64,000 nt of DNA from an uncultured Bacillota bacterium (GTDB taxonomy: Bacteria; Bacillota_I; Bacilli_A; RFN20; CAG-826). The notes beneath the pieces were generated by a model. That model worked only from the letters and a program-made list of their open reading frames with translations. It made no database searches and was not told the origin of the DNA. This document shows, piece by piece, positions 52,196-53,435 of the stretch. Position 1 is the first letter of the stretch. The number at the start of each line of letters is the position of its first letter. Made by a program: the position numbers and the translations under genes. The stretch lies in the NCBI GenBank assembly GCA_949287245.1, contig CASEFL010000002.1:1-64000 (forward strand), in the 5' to 3' direction.

Positions 52196-52320
52196 CGTTA
52201 CAAAATTACATAATGTAACGTATTATGCGTTACATTTTTTATTTATATAATTATTAATTTTTCCTAGTAAAAAACATTATTTTTATTGATATGTAACGTA
52301 AATAGCGTTACATTAATCTT
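52196..52320 (+). promoter_or_regulatory. Promoter and twin operators of the RelB-macrodomain pair
   Basis: Two identical-plan inverted repeats TGTAACG-N7-CGTTACA lie at 52214-52234 and 52292-52312, 78 bp apart, with a further half-site CGTTACA at 52196-52202. The promoter is TTGATA (52286-52291), 17-nt spacer, TACATT (52309-52314), then AATCTT and the ATG at 52321. The right operator covers the spacer and most of the -10 box, the usual place for autorepression by an RHH antitoxin. There is no Shine-Dalgarno, so the mRNA should be leaderless. Confidence 0.8.
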
Positions 52321-52599
52321 ATGAGTAAAACAACATTAAATTTACGGGTTGATGAGGACCTTAAAAAAGAAGCAGAAAAGGTTATAAAAAGACTAGGTTT
52401 ATCAACAACAGCCTGCGTTACATTATTTTTAAAAGCTTTGGTAAGGGAAAAGAAAATTCCCTTTTCGATTTCTTCGGAGTCAAAACGCACCACAGCTATA
52501 ACAAAGGAACGTACGGTTAAAACTCCGTCTAGTATCACAAAAGATGAAGAATCGAAGAAAGAAAAGCTAAGTTTAGCCAAAGCGATTGAATTGTTATGA
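52321..52599 (+). CDS. RelB/DinJ-type antitoxin
   Basis: 92 aa. The N-terminal ribbon-helix-helix part reads T-T-L-N-L-R-V-D-E-D-L-K-K-E-A-E-K-V-I-K-R-L-G-L-S-T-T-A-C-V-T-L-F-L-K-A-L-V, the RelB/DinJ pattern. The C-terminal half is charged and probably disordered (E-S-K-R-T-T-A-I-T-K-E-R), ending in a short helix A-K-A-I-E-L-L. In RelB proteins that part wraps the toxin. No RelE/YafQ toxin follows; instead a macrodomain gene overlaps by 4 bp (ATGA). It likely represses its own promoter at the twin operators. Confidence 0.88.
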   Translation: MSKTTLNLRVDEDLKKEAEKVIKRLGLSTTACVTLFLKALVREKKIPFSISSESKRTTAITKERTVKTPSSITKDEESKKEKLSLAKAIELL

Positions 52600-53387
52600 C
52601 CTTTTATGATGAATCTTTGCTTAATGAAATGATTTCCATTTTGCTTTCTCTTTATCCTAATTTTAGTTTTTTAAATCGCTTATATCCGCAAACAATAAAA
52701 GGAAAGAGAGCGTTATTAAGAGGACTAATGAATTTAGTTCCTGCCCCTTTTTCTCATCAACGATTTTTTGATTTGGAAAATATTCTTTTAGAAAGTGAAA
52801 AAGAGGAGAAAGAAGCGGTAAATTCAATGTTTTTGCCAGCCTCTGCCTATGACAAAATCACCCAGTTTAAAGGGGATATTTGTTTATTAGAAGTAGATGC
52901 TATTGTTTGTTCGCATTCTGAGGAATTTTTAGGCTGCTTTGTGCCTGATCATTTTTGTTTAGAAAACAACATTCATAGTGCGGCAGGAATTGAATTACGT
53001 AATGATTGTTATTTTATAAAGCAAAGCAATAAAAAGCATATGGTTCCAGGTTTTGTTGCGATTAGTGACGGTCATCATTTGCGCGCTAAAAAAGTCATTC
53101 ATGCACTTTTACCCAAGGCGGATAAACGACCAACAAATTTAGATTATCATCTATTAAAAGTGTGCTATGAAAATATTTTACGTTGTGCTTATCAAGAAAA
53201 AATTAAAACACTTGCTATTCCTACTCTTGGTACGGGGTCATCTGGTTTTCCTAAGAAAGAAGCTTTTTCTATCGCCTTTGATACAGTAGAAGACTTTTTA
53301 TTAGAGAAAAAAGACGCACCTATCGTTATTTTTGTTACTTATACCTCTGAAGATCATAATATTGTGGAGGAAAGTATTGGCATCTAA
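52596..53387 (+). CDS. Zinc-macrodomain protein with altered ADP-ribose motif
   Basis: 263 aa, the full length of the zinc-dependent protein-ADP-ribose hydrolase (SauMacro/SpyMacro) group. The N-terminal helical region has G-K-R-A-L-L-R-G-L-M-N-L (36-47). G-D-I (93-95), the zinc ligands C114, H119 and C121 in G-C-F-V-P-D-H-F-C, H-S-A-A-G-I-E-L-R and the C-terminal G-T-G-S-S-G-F-P-K-K-E-A are kept. The usual N-A-A-N-S after D-A-I-V is C-S-H-S-E here (105-109), so both Asn are lost. Known relatives sit beside SirTM and lipoylation genes; this one sits behind an antitoxin gene. It may be a reader, inactive partner or altered enzyme; the role is unknown. Confidence 0.85.
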   Translation: MTFYDESLLNEMISILLSLYPNFSFLNRLYPQTIKGKRALLRGLMNLVPAPFSHQRFFDLENILLESEKEEKEAVNSMFLPASAYDKITQFKGDICLLEVDAIVCSHSEEFLGCFVPDHFCLENNIHSAAGIELRNDCYFIKQSNKKHMVPGFVAISDGHHLRAKKVIHALLPKADKRPTNLDYHLLKVCYENILRCAYQEKIKTLAIPTLGTGSSGFPKKEAFSIAFDTVEDFLLEKKDAPIVIFVTYTSEDHNIVEESIGI

Positions 53388-53410
53388 GATTGGTTTATAA
53401 AAAAGAAAAA

Positions 53411-53435
53411 CCTGCCCCTTTCGAGGCAGGTATTT
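53411..53435. terminator. Terminator between the macrodomain and ppdK genes
   Basis: CCTGCC-N8-GGCAGG (53411-53430) flanked by AAAAA and TATTTTT; can serve both convergent transcripts. Confidence 0.85.

What the first reader, a model, noticed from the sequence alone, without database searches (positions are those of the whole stretch)
52321..53387. RelB/DinJ-type antitoxin coupled to a zinc-macrodomain protein in place of a toxin
Seen: an RHH antitoxin frame with a disordered C-terminal tail overlaps by 4 bp a 263-aa zinc-macrodomain gene. No RelE, YafQ or HigB frame lies nearby, and both genes sit between one promoter and one terminator. Known: RelB/DinJ pair with RNase toxins, DarG is a macrodomain antitoxin to DarT, and zinc-macrodomains usually accompany SirTM and lipoylation genes. 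Inference: this is a toxin-antitoxin-like module in which the macrodomain protein is the partner of the antitoxin, either as a new effector or as a sensor of ADP-ribosylated targets that tunes the repressor. I do not know of this pairing as a described system.
Basis: partly seen in the sequence, partly recalled or inferred. Interest (0 to 1): 0.78.

Follow-up and report, generated by a model that had tools for sequence, protein, structure and literature searches.

The report
RelB-controlled operon with degenerate zinc-macrodomain
In one genus of small-genome gut Bacilli, a DNA-binding protein that descends from a toxin-antitoxin antitoxin sits in one self-controlled operon with an ADP-ribose-binding-type protein that has mostly lost its catalytic residues yet is kept by selection; this looks like a small regulatory circuit, not a poison-antidote pair.

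Summary
In detail: a RelB/DinJ-family RHH gene (52321-52599) overlaps a zinc-macrodomain gene (52596-53387) by ATGA, and the genome has no YafQ, RelE/ParE or sirtuin gene. The pairing is not chance. In 18 of 37 genomes of the genus the same macrodomain clade (single origin) lies downstream of the same RelB, directly in 13 and with a DUF362 4Fe-4S gene between in 5. The pair stayed together through rearrangements. It was not found outside the genus: 0 of 71 sampled Zn-macro loci.
The toxin-antitoxin reading is not supported. This RelB lacks the DinJ toxin-clamp segment, forms its own clade, and persists under purifying selection in 12 genomes without the macrodomain. It has a dedicated operator, TGTAACG-N7-CGTTACA. 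The own genome holds exactly two copies, both in the relB promoter, and no others within 2 mismatches. The site recurs before relB in most relatives, macro-less ones included.
The RelB-linked macrodomains have degenerate active sites: 16 of 17 lack part of the catalytic set, against 2 of 71 others. dN/dS stays at 0.11-0.19.
Best reading: an autorepressed operon of a re-purposed solitary antitoxin and a probably non-catalytic macrodomain reader. Direct contact between the two proteins is untested; a fused-chain model gave no confident docking.

The parts
52321..52599 (+). relB-like gene: N-terminal RHH domain, variable disordered linker, conserved C-terminal mini-helix (SLAKAIELL)
   Evidence: Pfam RelB, TIGR02384; alignment; model; dN/dS 0.07-0.18 across close pairs
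52596..53387 (+). zinc-macrodomain gene: Cx4HxC zinc motif intact, but NAAN->CSHS, catalytic Asp->Glu and active-site arene lost
   Evidence: RelB-linked clade 96/94 support
52292..52312 (+). proximal operator TGTAACGTAAATAGCGTTACA, overlapping the -10 box of the relB promoter
   Evidence: one of only two sites in the genome; conserved position 16/29 bp before the start codon in G111, G047, G096, G164
52214..52234 (+). distal operator TGTAACGTATTATGCGTTACA; with flanking bases and a T run it also scores as an intrinsic terminator after glmU
52286..52314 (+). putative promoter TTGATA-17-TACATT; the start codon follows 7 bases later without a Shine-Dalgarno, so possibly leaderless
   Evidence: (consensus match only) and sequence
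53410..53431 (.). bidirectional intrinsic terminator shared with the convergent pyruvate phosphate dikinase gene

Best explanation
An autoregulated, genus-specific operon. A solitary, re-purposed RelB (RHH dimer) binds TGTAACG-N7-CGTTACA over its own -10 box, and a second copy about 78 bp upstream, and so represses its own transcription together with that of the downstream Zn-macrodomain. The macrodomain is descended from the SirTM-type ADP-ribosyl hydrolases but has lost most of the catalytic set, so it most likely works as a binder (reader) of an ADP-ribose-type ligand or modified protein, not as a toxin. Strongly supported by sequence: operon, operator, RelB family, degenerate active site, purifying selection. 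Inferred: repression itself, ligand binding, and any feedback of the macrodomain on the repressor through the RelB tail (a plausible extra step, roughly 35%).
For: Exact operator GTAACG-N7-CGTTAC: 16 places in 37 genomes, 14 of them directly upstream of this relB. In the own 1.1 Mb genome there are two copies, both in the 130 bp before relB, and none with 1 or 2 mismatches. The 8-mer GCGTTACA lies within 120 bp upstream of 18 of 24 relB copies, including macro-less G068, G083, G158, G165, G160 and G161, against 0.0098 expected per 120 bp; none of 7 YafQ-linked DinJ genes of the genus has it. RelB-linked plus orphan RelBs form one clade apart from YafQ-linked DinJs (97/94) and lack the PNxxTxxAxxE segment those share. 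RelB-linked macros form one clade (96/94). The full catalytic set is present in 1 of 17, against 69 of 71 RelB-free Zn-macros. dN/dS is 0.11-0.19 even where the zinc ligands are gone (G167/G169, 0.11). No sirtuin in the own genome.
Against: No binding, repression or expression data exist. The G104 and G168 relB genes lack the operator. In G129, the genome whose macro keeps every catalytic residue, relB and macro are separated by DUF362, so the ancestral unit may have been a three-gene operon. Zinc ligands are intact in the window's own copy, so some activity cannot be excluded.
Confidence: 0.62

Rival explanations
1. Macrodomain as sensory co-regulator: the RelB C-terminal helix docks on the macrodomain, and an ADP-ribose-type ligand changes repressor-operator affinity, analogous to conditional cooperativity with the toxin replaced by a metabolite sensor.
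For: Macro of this clade never found without RelB (18 of 18); pair kept together when moved away from glmU in G157 and G159 and when glmU left in G146/G154/G155/G156; C-terminal SLxxAIxxL conserved; catalysis lost but gene under selection.
Against: The C-terminal helix is equally conserved in macro-less orphans. A fused-chain model gave no confident docking: tail pLDDT 38-49, against about 65 for the helix in RelB modelled alone. Mirror-tree signal (partial r 0.42) is not specific, since rsmA gives similar values.
Confidence: 0.33
2. True toxin-antitoxin pair with a new toxin: the macrodomain is toxic and RelB neutralises it.
For: Antitoxin-toxin gene order, 4-bp overlap, autoregulation, and the asymmetric distribution (RelB without macro in 12 genomes, macro without RelB in none).
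Against: Vertical, mostly syntenic inheritance and no trace of mobility (no relative in viral contigs; outside this genus none of the sampled loci is RelB-linked). No toxin-clamp segment. DUF362 between the genes in five genomes. Zinc and catalytic residues lost with no conserved replacement motif.
Confidence: 0.08
3. Ordinary co-transcription: an active ADP-ribosyl hydrolase that happens to share a promoter with an unrelated autoregulator.
For: Zn ligands and His intact in the window copy; macro frequently missing next to a retained RelB; the association arose only once.
Against: Pair conserved over 20-60% identity and through several rearrangements; loss of NAAN/Asp/arene in 16 of 17 copies; no sirtuin writer in the own genome.
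Confidence: 0.22

Closest known systems
DinJ-YafQ / RelBE type II toxin-antitoxin systems
   Same: RHH antitoxin of the RelB/DinJ family upstream of and overlapping the second gene; palindromic operator over the promoter
   Different: No RelE/YafQ-fold toxin anywhere in the genome; the toxin-clamp segment is replaced by a disordered linker; the antitoxin persists alone
SirTM/Zn-Macro ADP-ribosylation operons (Rack/Ahel; PMC11490716)
   Same: Zn-Macro fold with the N-terminal 3-helix bundle (model of the G155 homologue: TM 0.94 to 8rsj); Cx4HxC zinc motif in the window copy
   Different: No SirTM, LplA or GcvH-L neighbour and no sirtuin in the genome; NAAN, catalytic Asp and arene lost; RelB instead of SirTM as partner gene
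DarTG
   Same: Macrodomain protein in a two-gene unit
   Different: Different macrodomain type (DarG model E=0.18, far below cut-off); no DarT gene next to it; gene order and regulator differ
GDAP2-like macrodomains
   Same: MacroD-type fold that has lost catalytic residues, arene and NAAN (as described in PMC11490716)
   Different: Eukaryotic, no zinc loop, no RHH partner

Membership tests
DinJ-YafQ/RelBE type II TA | RelB/DinJ-family RHH protein | tested here: met
   TIGR02384 69.7 bits over cut-off 45.65
DinJ-YafQ/RelBE type II TA | Adjacent RelE/ParE/YafQ-fold toxin | tested here: not met
   No PF15738 or PF05016 match in the own genome
DinJ-YafQ/RelBE type II TA | Antitoxin C-terminal toxin-clamp region | tested here: not met
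   PNxxTxxAxxE segment shared by YafQ-linked DinJs of the genus is absent; PDB DinJ/RelB matches end before the C-terminal helix (profile positions 49-75 of 93)
DinJ-YafQ/RelBE type II TA | Autoregulatory operator at own promoter | tested here: met
   By sequence only:
DinJ-YafQ/RelBE type II TA | Toxicity of gene 2 neutralised by gene 1 | not testable with these tools
   -
Zn-Macro ADP-ribosyl hydrolase (PRK04143) | Macro fold plus N-terminal 3-helix bundle | tested here: met
   (model is the G155 homologue, 263 columns aligned to 8rsj, TM 0.94)
Zn-Macro ADP-ribosyl hydrolase (PRK04143) | Cx4HxC zinc motif | tested here: met
   C114, H119, C121 of the window protein; lost in 8 of 17 RelB-linked copies
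Zn-Macro ADP-ribosyl hydrolase (PRK04143) | NAAN motif, Asp/His dyad and active-site arene | tested here: not met
   CSHS; Glu for Asp, His kept; Ser at the arene position; features as defined in PMC11490716
Zn-Macro ADP-ribosyl hydrolase (PRK04143) | Score above the equivalog cut-off | tested here: not met
   182.8 bits vs 272
SirTM/Zn-Macro operon | Linked macrodomain-associated sirtuin | tested here: not met
   No SIR2-family match in the own genome
DarTG | DarG-type macrodomain | tested here: not met
   NF048014 11 bits vs cut-off 250
DarTG | DarT ADP-ribosyltransferase gene adjacent | tested here: not met
   Neighbours are glmU and PPDK; DarT was not searched genome-wide

The most novel reading that the evidence does not exclude
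A domesticated antitoxin repressor and a catalytically dead zinc-macrodomain form a ligand-sensing switch: the macrodomain reads ADP-ribose, an NAD-derived metabolite or an ADP-ribosylated protein, and tunes RelB at its operator. This would be a toxin-antitoxin control circuit in which a metabolite reader has replaced the toxin.
Probability: 0.3. Interest if true: 0.75.

Novelty: new variant of a known kind. Interest (0 to 1): 0.5.

Why it matters
It gives a clean natural case of an antitoxin that has left the toxin-antitoxin world and become a dedicated regulator with a defined, testable operator, tied to a Zn-macrodomain lineage that lost catalysis several times yet is kept by selection. That makes two open questions testable: what solitary RelB proteins do, and whether bacterial macrodomains can act as pure ADP-ribose sensors in gene regulation.

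Tried and rejected
Classical TA with a hidden RNase toxin: rejected (no YafQ or ParE/RelE in the own genome). Horizontal defence or mobile module: not supported (no viral-contig relatives, PADLOC shows nothing relevant, and the plasmid matches shown are ordinary Zn-macros or other macrodomain proteins, some annotated with a sirtuin next to them). SirTM partner elsewhere in the genome: rejected. Pseudogene decay of the macrodomain: rejected by dN/dS; only the G141 copy is frameshifted. Mirror-tree test of coevolution: looked positive but the rsmA control is similar, so inconclusive. Docking proxy by reading through the stop codon in G155 (RelB and macro in frame there): no confident contact; weak, because RHH dimerisation is missing and only confidence values are returned. 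RelB as a wider regulon regulator: no further operator within 2 mismatches in the own genome. Literature search for RHH or RelB with macrodomain found no description of the pairing (open-access papers only).

Full report
Observation. The window carries a 92-aa RelB/DinJ-family RHH gene (52321-52599) overlapped by ATGA by a 263-aa zinc-macrodomain gene (52596-53387), both on +. The pair lies between glmU and a convergent pyruvate phosphate dikinase gene. The whole genome (1.12 Mb, 97% complete) has one such macrodomain, one RelB of this type, no YafQ, no ParE/RelE toxin and no sirtuin.

Distribution. In 37 genomes of the genus the macrodomain of this clade occurs in 18, always downstream of a RelB of the same type. 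The two are adjacent in 13: G000, G111, G047, G096, G164, G146, G154, G159, G155, G156, G104, G157, G168. A DUF362 4Fe-4S gene lies between them in 5: G024, G167, G169, G141 (macro frameshifted), and G129, where the order is inferred across a contig break. The usual place is rsmA-ispE-glmU-relB-macro-PPDK. The pair stays together where glmU has left (G146, G154, G155, G156) and where it has moved (G159, G157). Twelve genomes keep the RelB without this macrodomain (G068, G083, G147, G149, G150, G151, G158, G160, G161, G162, G163, G165). Among 80 Zn-macro loci from genome contigs, RelB sits directly upstream in 8, and those I could match by contig are this genus's own genomes; a ninth locus, L162, is G129, where relB lies on another contig. 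None of the remaining 71 has RelB, and most have a SirTM neighbour. The contig scan required the motif GCFVP[GD]H, so it cannot see relatives that lack it. RelB-linked macros form one side of a branch, 96/94 support: one origin, then vertical inheritance.

The RelB. It has an intact RHH domain, a variable disordered linker and a conserved terminal helix (S[LI]xxAIxxL), present with or without the macrodomain. Genuine DinJ proteins with YafQ partners in the same genus and family carry a PNxxTxxAxxE segment that this group lacks; the two groups separate at 97/94. Purifying selection holds both in pairs (dN/dS 0.09-0.18) and in orphans (0.07-0.11).

The operator. TGTAACG-N7-CGTTACA occurs twice in the own genome, at 52214-52234 and 52292-52312, with no other site up to 2 mismatches. 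In 37 genomes the exact inner palindrome occurs at 16 places, 14 of them directly before this relB. GCGTTACA lies within 120 bp of 18 of 24 relB starts, expected 0.0098 per 120 bp from the fetched stretches, which include the operators themselves; the YafQ-linked DinJs of the genus lack it. The proximal site overlaps the -10 box. This is strong sequence evidence for an autorepressor, retained in macro-less genomes; binding itself is inferred.

The macrodomain. The model of the G155 homologue matches Zn-Macro crystal structures including the helical bundle (8rsj, TM 0.94). Ariza et al. (PMC11490716) define the hydrolase by Cx4HxC, NAAN, the Asp/His dyad and an arene, and show that zinc coordination is strictly tied to activity. 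The window protein keeps C114/H119/C121 and the His, but has CSHS for NAAN, Glu for Asp and Ser at the arene position. Across 17 RelB-linked copies only G129 has the full set; 8 have lost zinc ligands, in three separate groups on the tree. Among 71 RelB-free Zn-macros 69 have the full set (Fisher p 2e-14, not corrected for relatedness; the C and H of the zinc motif were part of the scan pattern). Copies without zinc ligands are still under purifying selection (G167/G169 dN/dS 0.11). So these are probably non-catalytic proteins that are kept for another use.

Mechanism. Best supported: RelB represses its own operon, and the macrodomain is a co-expressed ADP-ribose-type reader. Whether the macrodomain feeds back on RelB is open. 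A read-through fusion model (G155, where the genes are in frame; the stop codon read as Gly) gave a low-confidence tail, no better than RelB alone. Distance correlation between the two proteins beyond glmU (0.42) is matched by a control gene. The conserved tail in macro-less genomes says that it has at least one role independent of the macrodomain.

Verdict. I found no description of the pairing in open-access papers.

Noticed in passing
window 52212-52236: The distal operator plus T run doubles as a predicted terminator of glmU; the same layout is seen in G111.
   Followed up: partly
window 52286-52321: The relB promoter places the start codon about 7 bases after the -10 box without a Shine-Dalgarno: possibly a leaderless transcript.
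   Followed up: no
L053:8000-9115, L127, L126, L065, L062/L050: A DUF362 4Fe-4S gene lies between relB and the macrodomain in five genomes; it may be an ancestral third member of the operon.
   Followed up: partly
L116:4146-4325, L051:6912-7100, L053:7003-7212, L129:5106-5297: A 59-69 aa short charged protein (SHOCT-like by eye; no Pfam hit for the L053 copy) follows the macrodomain in several relatives.
   Followed up: partly
L124:6585-6884: A second RHH gene with the same linker plus C-terminal helix layout lies upstream of the relocated pair in G157.
   Followed up: no
L063, L134, L135: glmU is shortened to about 334 aa in the macro-less clade, against 460 aa in the window, so the C-terminal part is missing.
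   Followed up: no
L051 and L129 upstream of relB: G104 and G168 lack the operator and have TGTATATACA-type palindromes instead, hinting at an operator switch.
   Followed up: no
L065:7998-8863: The macrodomain of G141 is frameshifted (pseudogene or assembly error).
   Followed up: no
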